From Streptomyces sp. DG1A-41 (lineage in GTDB: Bacteria; Actinomycetota; Actinomycetes; Streptomycetales; Streptomycetaceae), in assembly GCF_037055355.1 (NCBI RefSeq), contig NZ_CP146350.1:7277001-7341000 (forward strand): 64,000 nucleotides of DNA. The letters are read 5' to 3'. Both the position numbers and the translations under genes were made by a program. This document shows positions 50,201 through 59,680 of the stretch, one piece after another. Positions within the stretch are counted from its first letter, which is position 1. The number at the start of each line of letters is the position of its first letter. The notes under the pieces were generated by a model. That model had not been told where the DNA came from. It ran no database searches and saw only the letters and a list, made by a program, of their open reading frames with translations.

Positions 50201-51232
50201 TTGTCGACACATGAGTCTCCGGACTCCGAGTGGCAGCGGCTGTGGAGCCACCGGGAGGCGCTACTGAAAGTGGCACGGAGCCGGTCCGCGAGCCCGGAGG
50301 ACGCCGAGGACGCAGTGCAGGAGGCGATGGTCCGCGCGGCGGAGAACCCGAACGTGGACCGTGACCGCCTCGGCGCCTGGCTGACGTCCGTGACGGTACG
50401 GCTCTGTGTGGACCGCCACCGCCAGCTCCGCCGCGACGAGGCGGTGAGCGCCCGCGCCCACACCGTGCTGACCTCCGCCCCCTCCGGCTCTCCGGAAGAC
50501 ACGGTCTGCGACCGCGCCGAGGCCAGGTGGCTCGCCCTCCAGAGCCGCTCCCTGCCCCGGCGCCAGGCGGAGGCACTGAAGCTCAAAGCCCAGAACCTGG
50601 ACGTCGCGCAGGTCGCGCGGCACATGGGGCTCACATACAAGGCCACGGAGTCGCTGCTGGGCCGCGCCCGGCAGACCCTGCGGGCGGTGCTGGCCTCCAC
50701 GCTGGCTCTTGTCCTCGGCCTGTGGCGCGGACGCCCCCGCACCAACGGCGGCACGTCGGCCGCCGCACCCGCCACCACACTGGTGTCCGCCGGGGCCGCG
50801 GTGGTGCTCGCCGGTCTGGTGCTCGTCACGCCCGCCGAGGCGGAGCGGCCGGCCATGCCCGAGAGCCCGCTGTCGGGGCCCGCCGACTCCGTGTCCTCGT
50901 CCGGTCTCGGGTACGAGGACCAAGGCGCGGAACCGGGCGCGATTCCCGGTACGCCGGTCATCGAGACCCGTCTCGTCACACCGGCGGGCGCGGGGGTGAC
51001 CCCCAGCGCCGTACCAGCGACGCCGATGACCGGCACCACCCCGCCAACCGGCGCGACGGAACCCACCGGCCCGTCCCTCCCCGCGACCCCGGCGGCCGAC
51101 CTCCCGACGCTGCTGGAGCCCCCCGCCACGACACTCCCGCCGCTCCCCGGCGTCCCGGCGCTGCTTCCTCCCGTCGAGGCTTCCGTCCCGCCCCTGCCCG
51201 GTACAGCGGTTCCGGCCGCGATGACGCCCTGA
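50201..51232 (+). CDS. Membrane-anchored ECF sigma factor with extracytoplasmic tail
   Basis: A 343-aa protein. Residues about 15-80 match sigma region 2 (EALLKVARSRSASPEDAEDA, then VQEAMVRAAENP). Residues about 115-162 match region 4 (LPRRQAEALKLKAQNLDVAQ, then VARHMGLTYKATESLLGRAR). Unlike normal ECF factors it continues: a hydrophobic patch at about 164-175, one transmembrane helix at about 192-210 (TTLVSAGAAVVLAGLVLVTP), then 130 residues rich in Pro, Thr, Ala and Gly that should lie outside the membrane. TTG 50201 is chosen for the GAGAGGGGCAGG ribosome site and the fit to region 2. Tethering implies control by release or signal capture at the membrane. It heads a same-strand set with a secreted peptidase. 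Confidence 0.8.
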   Translation: MSTHESPDSEWQRLWSHREALLKVARSRSASPEDAEDAVQEAMVRAAENPNVDRDRLGAWLTSVTVRLCVDRHRQLRRDEAVSARAHTVLTSAPSGSPEDTVCDRAEARWLALQSRSLPRRQAEALKLKAQNLDVAQVARHMGLTYKATESLLGRARQTLRAVLASTLALVLGLWRGRPRTNGGTSAAAPATTLVSAGAAVVLAGLVLVTPAEAERPAMPESPLSGPADSVSSSGLGYEDQGAEPGAIPGTPVIETRLVTPAGAGVTPSAVPATPMTGTTPPTGATEPTGPSLPATPAADLPTLLEPPATTLPPLPGVPALLPPVEASVPPLPGTAVPAAMTP

Positions 51233-51381
51233 CTTCATGCAAACCCACGCTGCCACCCACCAGCAGAGCGCCAAAAAGTTTCGCGCTGTCCGCGAGGGAT
51301 CGCCCACCCCTCCCCGTAGAGCAGGTGACACCACCGCCGGGCCCCAGCCCGGCGGGGACGTAATCACCAGCGGAGAGTCAC

Positions 51382-52851
51382 TTGCACAGCACCAAGGACA
51401 GCGGACGGCGCCGCCGCCGCGGCGGGTCTCTGCTCGCGCTGTCGGCCGCCTTCGTCTGCGCTCTCACCGTGGGCGCGCAGCCCGCGCAGGCCGTGGGCGA
51501 GACGAGCCTCGGCCGGCGCTTCAACGACGGGCTGGACACCCGGCTCAGCGCGACCGCGTTCCGCGACGCGGCCCGCACGATCGGCTACACGGGCACGAGT
51601 TACACCTCCGGCCGCAGCGCCGACAACGCCTGGGCGGACGGCATGGACGCGGGCGTCTTCGCGCTGTTCGGGCACGCGAACGGCGGCATCTTCCAGACCG
51701 ACGAGGGCACCACGGACGACCTGGACGCGATACTGGCCGCGGGCCGTACGTACGACGTCGCGCCGATCTACGAGAATCTGCGGTTCTTCACCGAGTACCT
51801 GCCGTACACCGACATGGACGACATGCGGCTGCTCGTGCTCGCGGGCTGCGACACCGCGCAGACGGGCCAGCTCGGGAACTTCAACGACGTCGCCGTCTCG
51901 CGCGGCATCGACTCGGTCATCAGCTTCTCGGACCTGGTGATGTACCCGGCGACCACCTCCGGCACCCTGCCGAGCGCGACGAACTACTCGGGCAACTACT
52001 TCTGGAGCCGGTTCTCGTACCACGCCACCACTGGCGTGAGCGTGAGCACCGCACTGTCCCGGGCACGCTCGGACCTCGTGGCCAAGGAAGGCTCGGCGGG
52101 CGGCTGGGACAAGTACGTAGTGCGGGGCGCCGCCGCCAATCCCGGTGCCGTGAAACTCAAGCCGGCCGCGGAGGGGGAACCGTTCAACAGCCAGCCGGTA
52201 GCCACGCCGACGTTCTCGTCGCCCGCCTCCCTGACGCCCGTCTCCACCACCTCGGCCGAGGGCCCGTCAGGCGAACCGCTCACGACGGTGCACACCGCCG
52301 AGGGCGTCGAGTACCGGACCGACGCCGACGGTTCGCTGTACGACCTCGTCGGTGTCCCGTCGACGAGCGGTGAGCAGTCGCTGGACGCGGCCGAGGTCCG
52401 GGCCGCCGCCGAGGAGTTCGTCGGCCGCAACGTCCCCGGCTGGAGCGCGGACTGGGAGCTGGTCGCCGAGGAGTCCGTGAGCCATATCGCGGGCGACGCC
52501 GTGACGCTGCTGCGCTGGCGCCCGACCGAGGCCGGGCACCCGGGAGCGCGCGAGGTGACCGTCGAGGTCGACCGCCGCACCGGCGCCGTGACCTATCTGT
52601 CCGCCGCGCGGGGCACCGCGGGAACTGCGGGCTTCGTGGTCACCGCCGAGGAGGCCGTCGCCGCGGCCCGCGCCGCGATCGGCGACGACCACGGCACCGC
52701 GACCGCGACCCCCGACACCTGGGACACCTCGCGCTGGACGGTCACCGTCGACCGCGGCCTCACAGGCCGCCCGGGCGCCGAGACCCCGGACGTGGAGCGC
52801 GTCACGGTCGACGCCCGCAGCGGCGCCGTCCTTTCCCGTACGGCGACCTGA
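51382..52851 (+). CDS. Secreted clan-CD-like cysteine peptidase with PepSY repeats
   Basis: A 489-aa exported protein. TTG 51382 follows GGAGAG. A basic N-terminus and Sec signal (RRRRRGGSLLALSAAFVCAL, ending AQAVG) precede a domain with His98 in GVFALFGHANGG and Cys156 in MRLLVLAGCDTAQTG. The spacing and the strand-loop contexts (hydrophobic strand, then GH or GC) are those of the caspase-like His/Cys dyad of clan CD, closest in style to CHAT proteases. Residues about 320-405 and 412-489 resemble two PepSY-type domains (REVTVEVDRRTGAVTYLSAA, VERVTVDARSGAVLSRTAT), which often inhibit or regulate secreted peptidases. Predicted role: regulated extracellular proteolysis. Family assignment is by motif only. 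Confidence 0.62.
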   Translation: MHSTKDSGRRRRRGGSLLALSAAFVCALTVGAQPAQAVGETSLGRRFNDGLDTRLSATAFRDAARTIGYTGTSYTSGRSADNAWADGMDAGVFALFGHANGGIFQTDEGTTDDLDAILAAGRTYDVAPIYENLRFFTEYLPYTDMDDMRLLVLAGCDTAQTGQLGNFNDVAVSRGIDSVISFSDLVMYPATTSGTLPSATNYSGNYFWSRFSYHATTGVSVSTALSRARSDLVAKEGSAGGWDKYVVRGAAANPGAVKLKPAAEGEPFNSQPVATPTFSSPASLTPVSTTSAEGPSGEPLTTVHTAEGVEYRTDADGSLYDLVGVPSTSGEQSLDAAEVRAAAEEFVGRNVPGWSADWELVAEESVSHIAGDAVTLLRWRPTEAGHPGAREVTVEVDRRTGAVTYLSAARGTAGTAGFVVTAEEAVAAARAAIGDDHGTATATPDTWDTSRWTVTVDRGLTGRPGAETPDVERVTVDARSGAVLSRTAT

Positions 52852-52870
52852 TCCGTACGGCGACTTGATC
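52837..52870 (+). repeat. 17-bp tandem duplication across a stop codon
   Basis: CGTACGGCGACCTGATC (52837-52853) is followed at once by CGTACGGCGACTTGATC (52854-52870), one base different. The first copy holds the TGA stop of the peptidase gene. More CCGTAC words follow in the same 164-base gap. Confidence 0.8.
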
Positions 52871-53015
52871 CCGTACCTCAAGGGCGCTGTCCCTACACAC
52901 GGTTCACCGATCCCCGTACGACGAGCCCTCCCGTACCGGTGGCTCACCCCGTGCCCCCACGCAATTCCCACGACCCGATCCGTACCCCGTACGCAAAGAT
53001 CCGGAGCGATACCGA

Positions 53016-54311
53016 ATGACGTTTCGACGTATGAGCCTGTGGGCCACGGCAGCCGTCAGCTGTCTGTCCCTGGCCGTGCTGCCCGCCACGACGGCGGCGG
53101 CGCAGACCGAGGAGCCGGCGCCGACGGTCACGGCGACGAGCATTCCGCAGGTGCAGCGGAAGGTGACGCGGCTGCTGTTCACCGTCCCGCAGACCCTCGA
53201 CGAGCTAAAGGTCTCGCTGGCCGGGCTGAACCCGCTGCTGCTGCGGTACACCGGTGACTTCGGCGGCGGCAGCCAACCCGGCCCGGGCGCCCCGGCCGAC
53301 CAGGCCATCGAGAACATGCGCGAGGCCGTGACCGAGGAGTACGGCGTGGAGCCGCTGGTGTTCCTCGTCGTGGTCGACGGCGAGGTGCCTGCCGACCGGC
53401 TCACCGCCGTCGCCCCGGTGCTGTCCCAGTCCCAGGTCTTCGACTCGGACTCCCCCGCGGTCGAGGAACTGCCGCTCGGCACGCTGGAGCAGGCCGCCAC
53501 GGCCACCACGGAGCGCGAGCAGCTGCTGGGCCGCCGTGCCGCGGTCCTCGCCGCCGTCGAGGCGAGCCACCAGGAGCCCGCCCCCGCCGACTCCAGCACG
53601 ACGGAAGAACCCGCGCCCGACGGCCAGGGCGACGTCACCCCGGCCAACATCGGCAACACCTGGGCTCCTGTCTCGGCGGAGATGAGGGCCTACCGCTACT
53701 CGGCGAGCTCCAAGCCGCGCCACTTCCGGCACTACATGAGCTGGGGGTCGAGCAGCGACCTCGCCGCCTTCGGTGACGACTTCGGCTACGAGCACAACCT
53801 GTCGCTGTACAACTACGACCTGGTGGACATCTTCCCGCGCCCGTACTGCGCGGACAGCGCCTACACCGAGTTCTGGGCGGCCTGGTCGACGGGCTTCAAG
53901 TGGAACGCCGTCGACTACGGCTGGAACTACCCGAGTGCCGCTGCCGCGTACTGGGACTGGGACGACACCACCGACTCGTGCCAGAAGCTCGACTTCTCCG
54001 TCGGCGTCGGCTACCCGAAGAAGCTGGCCGCGGGCGTCACGTACAACTTCTGGATCCACGCCGAGAAGGGTGCCAAGTCCGCCTCCCCCTACGGCCTCGC
54101 GGGCCAGAAGCTCAGCAACGACTGCAACGACGCGGGTATGGACCCGGGCAGCTCCTGCATGGGCCTGAACTACACGCGGGCCGGCTCGCTCACCGAGCTG
54201 ATGGTGAACAGCAGCCGTGGCTGGACGGTGCCGAGCTGCGCGAAATGGGTCCGCGGCGGCTCCCCGACCGCGTCGTCCAACGGCACCGGAACCTGCCCCG
54301 CCAACAGCTGA
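53016..54311 (+). CDS. Secreted Cys-rich protein of unknown function
   Basis: A 431-aa exported protein with a Sec signal (LWATAAVSCLSLAVLPATTA, then AAQ). The N-terminal third (about 40-190) is helical and strand-rich (LDELKVSLAGLNPLLLRYTG, VEPLVFLVVVDGEVPADRLT) and ends in an acidic Pro/Ser/Thr linker. The C-terminal part (about 205-431) is aromatic-rich (HYMSWGSSSDLAAFGDDFGY, WNAVDYGWNYP) and has six Cys that could form three disulfides. I do not recognise a family. GGAG precedes ATG 53016; ATG 53031 is an alternative. It follows the peptidase on the same strand and could be its substrate, inhibitor or co-effector. Confidence 0.75.
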   Translation: MTFRRMSLWATAAVSCLSLAVLPATTAAAQTEEPAPTVTATSIPQVQRKVTRLLFTVPQTLDELKVSLAGLNPLLLRYTGDFGGGSQPGPGAPADQAIENMREAVTEEYGVEPLVFLVVVDGEVPADRLTAVAPVLSQSQVFDSDSPAVEELPLGTLEQAATATTEREQLLGRRAAVLAAVEASHQEPAPADSSTTEEPAPDGQGDVTPANIGNTWAPVSAEMRAYRYSASSKPRHFRHYMSWGSSSDLAAFGDDFGYEHNLSLYNYDLVDIFPRPYCADSAYTEFWAAWSTGFKWNAVDYGWNYPSAAAAYWDWDDTTDSCQKLDFSVGVGYPKKLAAGVTYNFWIHAEKGAKSASPYGLAGQKLSNDCNDAGMDPGSSCMGLNYTRAGSLTELMVNSSRGWTVPSCAKWVRGGSPTASSNGTGTCPANS

Positions 54312-54333
54312 CCGCCGCAAGGAGGATGCGCGT

Positions 54334-54684
54334 ATGACCGCACACCACCAGCAGGGCCGACCGGCCCATGACGGAAACCGCACCCTGCGCACGGTGGGTC
54401 TGACGGCGGCGCTCGGACTCGCCGTCCTGGCGGCCGTGATGTTCTTCGTCGCCGATGCCGTCGCCACCAAGAAGTGCCTCGACACCGGTTACGGACTGGC
54501 CGACAGGATCAGCATGACCGAGGAGGGCTGCGAGCTGACGGTACGGGCCGCCGACGGCACCACACGCAGCGCCGTCGTGCCCACCCTCAGCGAGCCGCTG
54601 GCGACGGCGGCGCTGGCCACGGCGGTCGGGAGTGCTGTGGCTCCCGTCGTCTGCCTGTGGCTGGCGACCCGCCGCCAGCGCTGA
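54334..54684 (+). CDS. Small two-helix membrane protein
   Basis: A 116-aa protein starting at ATG 54334 with a strong AAGGAGG site. Two transmembrane helices are visible, TVGLTAALGLAVLAAVMFFV (about 20-42) and a C-terminal ATAALATAVGSAVAPVVCLW (about 88-110). The loop between them contains two Cys (KKCLDTG and EGCELTV) that would face outside and could pair. It is the last gene of the sigma-peptidase unit, 22 bases after the previous stop. Function unknown; a sensor or membrane partner of the secreted proteins is possible. Confidence 0.75.
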   Translation: MTAHHQQGRPAHDGNRTLRTVGLTAALGLAVLAAVMFFVADAVATKKCLDTGYGLADRISMTEEGCELTVRAADGTTRSAVVPTLSEPLATAALATAVGSAVAPVVCLWLATRRQR

Positions 54685-54860: not shown

Positions 54861-56025
54861 ATGCCCGTTGCCCCGGCCCGCCCGATAGCCCCGACCGCCG
54901 CCGAGCGCGAGCGGCTGGAGAAGATGGCCTACGGCCACAGGATCGAGCATCGGATGCGCCTGCGCGCGCAGATCGTCCTGCACGCGGCGCGTGGGTTCCA
55001 ACGCGCGCATCGTCCGTGAGACAGGCCTGCACCTGGACACCGTCCGCACCTGGCGGGGCCGGTTCGCCGAGCATGGCCTGCCGGGCCTGGATGACCGCGA
55101 GCGCACCGGCCGCCCGCGCACGTTCACCGCACTGCAGACCGCCCAGGTCACCGCGCCGGCCTGCGGCTGCCCGCTGAGACCGGGGTACCGCTGCCCCGCT
55201 GGTCGTGCCCGGAGTTGGCCCGCGAGGCCATGGAACGGGGCATCGTCACGTTCGTGTCGGCCTCCACCGTGCGCCGCTGGCTGGCCGCGGACGCGATCAA
55301 GCCCTGGCAGCACCGTTCGTGGATCTTCATCACCGATCCCGACTTCTGCACCAAGGCCGCCCGCGTCCTGGACCGGTACGCCCGCACCTGGCAGGGCCGA
55401 CCGCTGGGCGAGGACGAGTACGTCATCAGCGCGGATGAGAAGACCTCCGTCCAGGCCCGCTGCCGCTGCCATCCCACCCTCGCCCCCGGCCAGGCCCGCG
55501 CGATGCGCGTCAACCACACCTACGGCCGCGGCGGCGCCCTGGCCTACCTGGCCGCCTACGACGTCCACCGCGCGAAGGTGTTCGGCCGCACCGAGCCGCG
55601 CACCGGCATCGCCCCGTTCATGAACCTGGTCGCCCAGGTCATGCGCACCGAGCCGTACGCCAAGCGCCAAGCGGGTGTTCTGGATCGTGGACAACGGCTC
55701 CTCCCGTCGCGGCGGGGCCGCATCGGAACGGTTGACCGCCGCCTTCCCCAACGCGGTGCTGGTCCACACCCCGGTACACGCCTCCTGGCTGAACCAGGTG
55801 GAGATCTACTTCTCCCCCTTCCAGCGCAAAGTCGTCTCGCCCAACGACTTCACCGACCTGGCCCAAGTCGCGGACTGGCTCCGAGCCTTCGAAGACCGCT
55901 ACAACGCCACGGCACAGCCGTTCCAGTGGAAGTTCACCACCTCCGACCTGGACGATCTGCTGGCCAGACTCGACCGGCACACCGCCCATCACCACGCAGA
56001 ATCCTCCGTCGCCCTGGCGGCATGA
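54861..56025 (+). pseudogene. IS630-family transposase remnant with three frameshifts
   Basis: Across three frames the sequence reads as a helix-turn-helix transposase of the IS630/Tc1 group: MAYGHRIEHRMRLRAQIVLH, then SNARIVRETGLHLDTVRTWR, then the DDE core. The core shows VISADEKTSVQAR (first Asp), VFWIVDNGSSRRG (second Asp) and HASWLNQVEIYFSPFQRK (Glu). Single-base changes near 55000, 55160 and 55665 break the frame. No terminal inverted repeats could be placed with confidence. It ends about 35 bases before the intact IS630 element. Confidence 0.8.
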
Positions 56026-56070
56026 TCAACCCCCGTAAGACTTCCGGAGCCGACCACTACTGAGGTTTCG

Positions 56071-56646
56071 TTAGTTCTGTGGGGTTGGCGGGTGGATGGT
56101 CAGGCCGGTGTGGGTGAGGAAGGACCATGGCAGATGCTGGCTCTGGTTGATGCGGCGGATGCCTTGTTCGGTGGCGTCGGCGACATCGGCGAGGTGGTTG
56201 CCGGCAAGGTTGGCGAGTTCGCGTTTCTTGAGCGATGACCACAGCAGTTCCACCGGGTTGAGCTCGGGAGCGTAAGCGGGTAATCGCTCGAGGGTGAGCC
56301 AGTTCTGTTCGGCGACCCAGGCGCGCATGGCCCGGCTCCAGTGGGCGGACAGGCCGTCCCAGACCAGGACCACCCGCTCTCCGCGATAGAACGCTTTGAG
56401 CTGTTCCAGGACCTCGATGAGAGCGGTGGTGTCGTAGCTGCCGGGCTTGAGGTGGAAACACAGACGGGGCCCGCGGTCGGGGTCGGTGGCGTGATAGCCG
56501 AGAGCCGCTGCCATCGAGGCGCGCTTCCAGTTGAGCCGATGCCGCAGGAGCGGAGTACGGCCGCGGGGTGCGTAAGTGCGGCGGATCTGAGGCAACAACG
56601 AGACGCCTGATTCGTCGAGGAACACGATCCAGGCACGTGTGTTCAC
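56071..56646 (-). CDS. IS630-family transposase OrfB (DDE catalytic part)
   Basis: About 191 aa carrying the catalytic core: IVFLDESGVSLLP (first Asp), VVLVWDGLSAHWS (second Asp) and LPAYAPELNPVELLWSSLKK (Glu). This is the full DDE set, so the element may be active. OrfB lies in the -1 frame relative to OrfA and overlaps it by four bases. The A6 run just upstream is the likely programmed slippage site giving an OrfAB fusion of about 360 aa. Confidence 0.88.
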   Translation of the reverse strand: MNTRAWIVFLDESGVSLLPQIRRTYAPRGRTPLLRHRLNWKRASMAAALGYHATDPDRGPRLCFHLKPGSYDTTALIEVLEQLKAFYRGERVVLVWDGLSAHWSRAMRAWVAEQNWLTLERLPAYAPELNPVELLWSSLKKRELANLAGNHLADVADATEQGIRRINQSQHLPWSFLTHTGLTIHPPTPQN

Positions 56647-57158
56647 CGCCCTTTTTTGCTACGCGGCCACTCGTGCGCGATCCAGCGGGCGATCTCAGAC
56701 TCGTCCCGCTCCACCGCCCGACGTTCCGGGCGCTGCAGACTCCACCCCAGCCGACCGGTCAGCAGACGCCAGATCGATGCACGCGACAGAACCACCCCCG
56801 TCACCCGCTCGACGACCATGCCGACCCGCTCCAGCGTCCACAGATCGGCCTCGAAGCCGTGCGCCTGGGCGCCTTGCTCCAGCGCTGTCCGCACCCGCTC
56901 GACCTGGGCGTCGTCCAGCTTGGGCGGGCGACCGGTGGCCAGGCGTCGTCGCAAGGCGTCAGTGCCGGCCTTCTCCCACACCCGTTTCCACCGCCGCACA
57001 CTCTCGTCGCTGACCCCCAGCATCAGTGCGATCTCGACATTCGAACGTTCTTGCTCGAACAACTCGGCCGCCCGTACACGCCGGGCCTCGGCCAACTGCG
57101 GTCGCGTCAAGGGAGGAACGGCAGGCCCGGAGACAACAGGCGAAGGCTTGAAAGACAC
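56643..57158 (-). CDS. IS630-family transposase OrfA (helix-turn-helix part)
   Basis: About 171 aa. It contains two helix-turn-helix units: VRAAELFEQERSNVEIALML followed by GVSDESVRRW, and a winged-helix segment (DLWTLERVGMVVERVTGVVL, then SRASIWRLL). It lacks the catalytic DDE residues. GTG 57158 inside the element has GGGAG upstream; longer readings begin outside the IS. The frame ends just past a run of six A (minus strand, 56657-56652), where a -1 slip would join it to OrfB. Confidence 0.85.
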   Translation of the reverse strand: MSFKPSPVVSGPAVPPLTRPQLAEARRVRAAELFEQERSNVEIALMLGVSDESVRRWKRVWEKAGTDALRRRLATGRPPKLDDAQVERVRTALEQGAQAHGFEADLWTLERVGMVVERVTGVVLSRASIWRLLTGRLGWSLQRPERRAVERDESEIARWIAHEWPRSKKGR

Positions 57159-57231
57159 GACAACAGACTCCCACCAACAAGCCCGCCACGCCCACAGAAC
57201 TAACGAAAACCTCAGTAGGCGTCCGTTCCCG

Positions 57232-59680
<2,449 letters not shown>

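What the first reader, a model, noticed from the sequence alone, without database searches (positions are those of the whole stretch)
50201..54684. Membrane-tethered ECF sigma factor, secreted caspase-like peptidase, Cys-rich secreted protein and small membrane protein in one directional set
Seen: four consecutive same-strand genes ending at a hairpin. They encode an ECF sigma factor with a transmembrane helix and a 130-residue outside tail, an exported protein with a His98/Cys156 dyad plus PepSY-like domains, an exported six-Cys protein, and a two-helix membrane protein with two outside Cys. Known: tethered sigma factors and PepSY-regulated secreted peptidases exist separately. Inference: the secreted peptidase could cut the sigma factor's outside tail or the small membrane protein to trigger release, or the sigma factor could drive expression of the set. 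I know of no described system with this composition.
Basis: partly seen in the sequence, partly recalled or inferred. Interest (0 to 1): 0.75.

Follow-up and report, generated by a model that had tools for sequence, protein, structure and literature searches.

The report
Tethered sigma factor driving secreted caspase-like peptidase
A rare Streptomyces gene set pairs a membrane-anchored gene switch with a secreted caspase-like enzyme, and a conserved promoter suggests that the switch turns the enzyme on; the same kind of switch usually sits beside a lipid-transport operon.

Summary

New result: a promoter-like element, GCGA-N19-CGTAGAGC, lies between A and B. It also precedes the mce lipid-transport operon beside the mce-type sigma paralogue, and a transglycosylase gene there. 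In the window's whole genome the exact element occurs three times, at these three places. So B(-C-D) is most likely an output of sigma A. Sigma relatives have the same build in genomes without B, so cutting of the tail by B is not needed by the family and is unsupported here. The terminal hairpin is no better than chance. What the secreted set does, and how A is released, remain inference. New variant of a known kind.

The parts
50201..51232 (+). Gene A: ECF-type sigma factor, region 2 (residues 16-78), region 4 (116-160), one transmembrane segment, Pro-rich C-terminal tail
   Evidence: 482 protein relatives at E<=1e-3, the best 120 listed
50771..50827 (+). Transmembrane segment of A, residues 191-209; a weaker hydrophobic stretch (159-177) and RGRPR lie before it
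   Evidence: KD mean 2.22 versus 1.25; second segment above 1.6 in 28 of 31 family members, first in 0 of 31
50837..51229 (+). Pro/Thr-rich tail of A, probably outside; poorly conserved in sequence
   Evidence: mean majority fraction 0.37 for residues 216-343 versus 0.76 for 1-180
51273..51277 (+). A-tract (AAAAA) upstream of the promoter-like element; similar tracts in most A-B and A-mce gaps
51292..51330 (+). Promoter-like element GCGA-N19-CGTAGAGCAGGTGACA between A and B (putative -35 at 51292, -10 at 51315)
51382..52851 (+). Gene B: secreted caspase-fold (clan CD-like) protein with C-terminal PepSY domains, 489 aa
51673..51675 (+). His98 codon of the putative catalytic dyad
   Evidence: 71 of 73 relatives
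51847..51849 (+). Cys156 codon of the putative catalytic dyad; the only Cys of B besides Cys26 in the signal segment
   Evidence: 73 of 73 relatives
52639..52839 (+). PepSY domain of B (residues 420-486); a second, DUF4901-like unit lies at 307-405
   Evidence: Foldseek match to YpeB C-terminal domain 5boi, E 1.7e-6
53016..54311 (+). Gene C: secreted two-domain protein, N-terminal alpha/beta domain, low-confidence linker 189-211, C-terminal beta-rich domain with six Cys
   Evidence: no Pfam family
54334..54684 (+). Gene D: 116-aa membrane protein, two hydrophobic segments

Best explanation
A belongs to a Streptomyces family of membrane-anchored ECF sigma factors, each encoded next to its own target operon and reading a promoter of the form GCGA-N19-CGTAGAGC. 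In most of the loci read the target is an mce lipid-transport operon, often with a transglycosylase gene. In this rare branch the target is an operon that begins with B, a secreted caspase-fold cysteine peptidase held in check or folded by its own PepSY domains, followed by one of two unrelated cargo pairs (here C and D). Steps shown by sequence: the anchor, the family, the adjacency, the shared element, the fold and the conserved dyad. Steps inferred: that A reads this element; that A senses the envelope through its tail and acts after release from, or while held at, the membrane; that B is an active peptidase whose first substrate is the secreted protein encoded next to it; and that D is the membrane partner of C. 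The core claim, to which the confidence refers, is that A is the sigma factor for B(-C-D) and B is an output, not the obligatory trigger.
For: Element directly downstream of A: CGTAGAGC exact in 11 of 11 A-B gaps, with GCGA at 19 nt in 10 of 11 (GCGC in L025), and ahead of the mce ATPase gene in 17 of 17 mce-type loci read, with GCGA in 16 of 17 (CCGA in L076). Also ahead of the transglycosylase gene in 10 of 12 loci that have one, exact core. The spacing is fixed: 37 cases at 19 nt; the next commonest value, 29 nt, has 6. In the window's genome exactly 3 exact matches, all beside A or its paralogue; the reversed control has 0 there, about 0.3 expected. Over 101 genomes there are 46 exact places against 24 for the control; by coordinates 30 of the 46 lie within about 2 kb of a sigma gene and 2 more beside a sigma fragment or its usual neighbours in G123, which leaves 14. 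17 of 22 genomes with A carry an exact match against 11 of 79 without (Fisher p 3.6e-8; relatedness not corrected; the two calls are taken to have drawn the same 101). Fold of B. Dyad.
Against: No transcription data. The pattern has a background of about 0.24 exact places per genome (24 in 101, control), and with two mismatches it is no commoner than its control (311 against 303). CGTAGAGCRGNTG is conserved over more bases than a -10 box needs, so it could be the site of another regulator. A itself has no such element directly upstream in B loci, so the autoregulation usual for ECF factors is not seen. 5 of 22 A-positive genomes lack the exact element. B and C are 164 nt apart in the window, so C could have a promoter of its own. 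In L013 the A reading frame runs through the element. Catalytic activity of B and the C-B relation are untested.
Confidence: 0.68

Rival explanations
1. B cuts the outside tail of A and so triggers release of the sigma factor, or forms a feedback loop with it.
Against: Sigma relatives of the same build occur without B beside them in 17 mce-type loci. The tail is hardly conserved in sequence, so no cleavage site is visible. B relatives are far rarer than A.
Confidence: 0.12
2. The element is the operator of another regulator that controls both the mce and the B operons; A is only a neighbour or is controlled by it too.
For: The conserved stretch is longer than a typical -10 box. No promoter assay exists.
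Against: Two blocks at a fixed 19-nt spacing look like a sigma promoter with a CGT-type -10 box, as in sigma-E promoters listed in PMC6767563 (passages seen). The element tracks sigma A across genomes and is beside sigma genes at all three exact sites in this genome. In the neighbourhood tables (the output was cut in the middle) I saw no other regulator gene shared by the mce and B loci.
Confidence: 0.17
3. The caspase-fold domain of B is not a working peptidase but a binding or sensor domain; the operon is an adhesion or surface-display set.
Against: His98 and Cys156 are kept in 71 and 73 of 73 relatives, which a dead enzyme would not need.
Confidence: 0.15
4. B-C-D is an antagonism set: C (or the alternative secreted protein) is a toxin matured by B, and the small membrane protein is its immunity protein.
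For: Two pairs of secreted protein and small membrane protein, between which profile comparison finds no relation, occupy the same place after B. Patchy distribution and decay: in 5 of 14 loci B is truncated, decayed or only partly matched.
Against: No toxin family found and no significant fold match for C. No PADLOC match beyond one at E 0.07 for B.
Confidence: 0.15

Closest known systems
ECF52 sigma factors (SCO4117 of Streptomyces coelicolor)
   Same: ECF sigma domain, transmembrane segment and Pro-rich outside extension in one protein, in Actinobacteria (PMC5826349 and PMC8999054, passages seen); no anti-sigma gene was seen beside A here either
   Different: A has no zinc finger and no carbohydrate-binding domain match, and sits beside its predicted target operon
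mce6 operon of Streptomyces (SCO2422 ATPase locus)
   Same: The same sigma family is encoded directly upstream of the ATPase-YrbE-Mce genes and shares the promoter-like element; that this is the mce6 locus is my inference from the gene order
   Different: The passages seen of the mce phylogenomics paper PMC1810536 mention the ATPase but no sigma factor gene beside it; the window locus has no mce genes
DdvA, transmembrane anti-sigma factor of Myxococcus xanthus (8rot, 8rw5)
   Different: In DdvA the domain is part of the anti-sigma factor; here it is a separate secreted protein with PepSY domains
Clan CD peptidases: CHAT, gingipains, separase, caspases
   Same: Fold, and order His then Cys at the ends of neighbouring strands
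   Different: No Pfam peptidase family and no sequence match to a solved member; C-terminal PepSY domains; secreted by an actinobacterium
YpeB C-terminal (PepSY) domain, 5boi
   Same: Matches the C-terminal half of B, E 1.7e-6
   Different: YpeB is not fused to a peptidase domain (recalled)

Membership tests
ECF sigma factors (sigma-70 family) | Sigma regions 2 and 4, no large region 1 or 3 | tested here: met
   PF04542 and PF08281 above cut-off; TIGR02937 above cut-off
ECF52 group | Zinc-finger domain between sigma domain and transmembrane segment | tested here: not met
   No zinc-finger family at E<=1; the only Cys are 69 and 103, both before the end of region 4
ECF52 group | Transmembrane segment followed by Pro-rich extension | tested here: met
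ECF52 group | C-terminal carbohydrate-binding domain | tested here: not met
   no such family at E<=1
mce-linked tethered sigma family (defined here) | Tree position with mce-type and B-type sigma genes | tested here: met
   The 17 mce-type rows form one side of a branch (97/93); window A lies on the other side with the other B-type rows; L078 and L079 branch apart at 100/100. Window A has a long end branch (0.4), so its exact place is unsure
mce-linked tethered sigma family (defined here) | GCGA-N19-CGTAGAGC element in front of the neighbouring operon | tested here: met
   51292-51330
Clan CD cysteine peptidases (caspase/CHAT/gingipain) | Caspase-type alpha/beta fold | tested here: met
Clan CD cysteine peptidases (caspase/CHAT/gingipain) | Conserved His and Cys in that order at strand ends | tested here: met
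   His98 71 of 73, Cys156 73 of 73; strands 90-96 and 150-154. The distance between the side chains was not measured, as coordinates are not given
Clan CD cysteine peptidases (caspase/CHAT/gingipain) | Proteolytic activity | not testable with these tools
   needs purified protein
PepSY domain proteins | Match to PF03413 above cut-off | tested here: met
   35.8 bits against 24
Toxin-immunity pair (C-D) | Growth inhibition by C, protection by D | not testable with these tools
   no toxin family matched

The most novel reading that the evidence does not exclude
A previously undescribed exported-protease module: a wall-spanning, membrane-held sigma factor, from a family that also controls mce lipid transport and cell-wall turnover, switches on a secreted caspase-fold peptidase with a built-in PepSY inhibitor, which activates one of several interchangeable secreted cargo proteins whose action is limited by a matching small membrane protein. 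Shared promoters would tie this extracellular protease programme to lipid import.
Probability: 0.22. Interest if true: 0.8.

Novelty: new variant of a known kind. Interest (0 to 1): 0.6.

Why it matters
It assigns a sharply defined candidate promoter, with three exact sites in the genome, to a tethered sigma factor family, so its regulation can be tested with three reporter fusions and one deletion. If right, the sigma factor of the Streptomyces mce locus and its targets are identified at the same time, and secreted caspase-fold proteins gain an actinobacterial branch under sigma control.

Full report
What is there. The window lies in a single-contig genome of the genus Streptomyces by its relatives (G000, 8,991,014 bases; window at 7,277,001-7,341,000). 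Four same-strand genes stand at 50201-54684. A is an ECF sigma factor with a strong hydrophobic segment at 191-209; a weaker hydrophobic stretch right after region 4 never reaches the threshold of 1.6 in 31 family members, while the second does in 28 of 31. B has a signal-like N terminus and a PepSY domain. C has no Pfam family. D is a small protein with two hydrophobic segments.

Distribution and neighbours. B is rare: 8 of 392 Streptomyces genomes at E<=1e-10, two of them matching only the C-terminal third, and 1 of 396 genomes across the phylum, the window's own. A scan of the genome-contig collection gave 10 loci, four of them the same contigs as, judged by equal contig lengths. That makes 14 distinct B loci with the window. 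A lies directly upstream on the same strand in 11 of 14; it was not found in L015, L028 and L031, where B is also cut short. In L016 B is a remnant, and in L032 only residues 148-489 of B are matched. C-D follows B in the window, L010 (S. spinoverrucosus contig) and L024 (S. jeddahensis); L015 keeps D and a broken C. A different pair, an exported protein of 407-427 residues and a membrane protein of about 100 residues, follows B in L011, L012, L013, L014, L025 and L026, and its first member (432 residues) follows the truncated B of L031. Profile comparison finds no relation between the two pairs. L028 and L032 have neither. So the conserved unit is A-B with exchangeable cargo, not the four genes. 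The cargo mostly stays with B: of 5 genomes of 392 with a C match, two (G000, G177) have it near full length and one (G165) in two pieces, all three beside B or its remnant; the other two have a 36% partial match (G381) and a 41-residue piece away from the B locus (G009). Of 4 genomes of 150 with a match to the alternative cargo, three are in B loci and one is a 24% match in G031.

A is a branch of a larger family. The search with A gave 482 proteins and matches in 22 of 101 Streptomyces genomes at E<=1e-40, 27 places. Four places are B loci; 20 others were read, and 3 were not. Of the 20, 17 lie directly upstream of an mce operon (ABC ATPase, two MlaE permeases, MlaD/Mce proteins; Pfam run on the window genome's own copy L060), and 12 of the 17 have a gene of the transglycosylase-domain cluster just before the sigma gene. 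The window's genome has such a paralogue at 2,503,530-2,504,516. In a tree of the sigma domain the 17 mce-type rows form one side of a branch (97/93); the B-type rows lie on the other side, with L072, which precedes another secreted protein, and with L078 and L079, which have no mce genes and branch apart (100/100).

The promoter-like element. Aligning the A-B gaps showed a block CGTAGAGC(A/G)GNTG with GCGA 19 nt before it and an A-tract further up. The exact core CGTAGAGC is in 11 of 11 A-B gaps (10 with GCGA at 19 nt; L025 has GCGC) and ahead of the mce ATPase gene in 17 of 17 mce-type loci (16 with GCGA; L076 has CCGA); it also precedes the transglycosylase gene in 10 of 12 such loci (a one-mismatch form in L063, none found in L068), and the secreted-protein gene after A in L072. 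L079 has no core, and L078 has the 8-base core at the end of its sigma gene without GCGA. Among exact cores in these loci, GCGA stood at 19 nt in 37 cases; the next commonest spacing, 29 nt, occurred 6 times, always in addition to a GCGA at 19. The script, limited to 400 nt after A, counts fewer (11 of 11, 15 of 17 and 2 of 3 with the core; 9, 14 and 1 with GCGA), because L067 and L075 have longer gaps and the stretch of L013 was cut at its edge.

Genome-wide. In the whole genome of the window the exact pattern GCGA-N19-CGTAGAGCRG occurs three times, at the mce ATPase, the transglycosylase gene and B, against 0 for the reversed control in that genome and about 0.3 expected. With two mismatches the pattern is no commoner than its control (311 against 303), so only exact matches carry weight. 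In 101 genomes there are 46 exact places in 28 genomes, against 24 control places. By coordinates 30 of the 46 lie within about 2 kb of a sigma gene; two more, in G123, a genome counted as A-negative, stand after the tail of such a sigma gene cut by a contig end and beside genes that flank the transglycosylase gene elsewhere; 14 remain, which is within the background. 17 of 22 genomes with A and 11 of 79 without have an exact match (Fisher p 3.6e-8, not corrected for kinship). The five A-positive genomes without it (G029, G076, G077, G089, G096) have the five weakest A matches.

Reading. The simplest account is that these tethered sigma factors read this element and that each sits beside its target operon. 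B, and with it C and D if they are read through, is then an output of sigma A. Because both sigma genes of this genome have the same element beside them, cross-talk between the mce and B operons is expected. How A is set free is unknown. Tethered ECF factors such as ECF52 are expected to be released by proteolysis (PMC8999054, passages), and DdvA shows that a CHAT-type domain can sit in such a pathway; but since 17 mce-type sigma genes of the same build lack B beside them, 13 of them in genomes where one search found no B, B cannot be the general trigger. The role of C and D is open. The exchange of one secreted-protein/membrane-protein pair for another after a constant protease suggests substrate and partner, or effector and immunity protein; neither is shown.

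Limits. No expression or protein data exist here. Gene calls in relatives came from a simple codon-usage script, backed by tblastn; it missed or trimmed some genes. The output was cut, and part of the missing rows was printed. The distance between His98 and Cys156 was not measured. The ECF group number could not be assigned, as the group models are not on hand.

Noticed in passing
G000:C1:2498000-2508000 (L060): The mce operon of this genome has a tethered ECF sigma gene and a transglycosylase-domain gene upstream, with the GCGA-N19-CGTAGAGC element in front of both the mce ATPase gene and the transglycosylase gene.
   Followed up: yes
window 54861-57251: Transposase genes directly after D: DDE_3 endonuclease at 56071-56643 (-) and helix-turn-helix protein at 56643-57251 (-), IS630-like by my reading; a further transposase-like fragment at about 54861-56025 (+), judged by eye (its frame 55215-56060 has no Pfam match); a similar short ORF follows D in L015.
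   Followed up: partly
L015 (G165), L016 (G242), L028, L031: Decayed copies of the locus: truncated B, broken C, or A with only the PepSY part of B; the set seems to be lost often.
   Followed up: partly
L072 (G109): A sigma relative outside the mce clade followed by the same element and, about 380 nt on, an unrelated secreted Cys-containing protein of about 245 aa: a further possible target type.
   Followed up: no
L182/L183 (G031) and L178 (G381): Distant relatives of the two cargo proteins; in G381 no A, B or D lies nearby; the G031 stretch was fetched but not read.
   Followed up: partly
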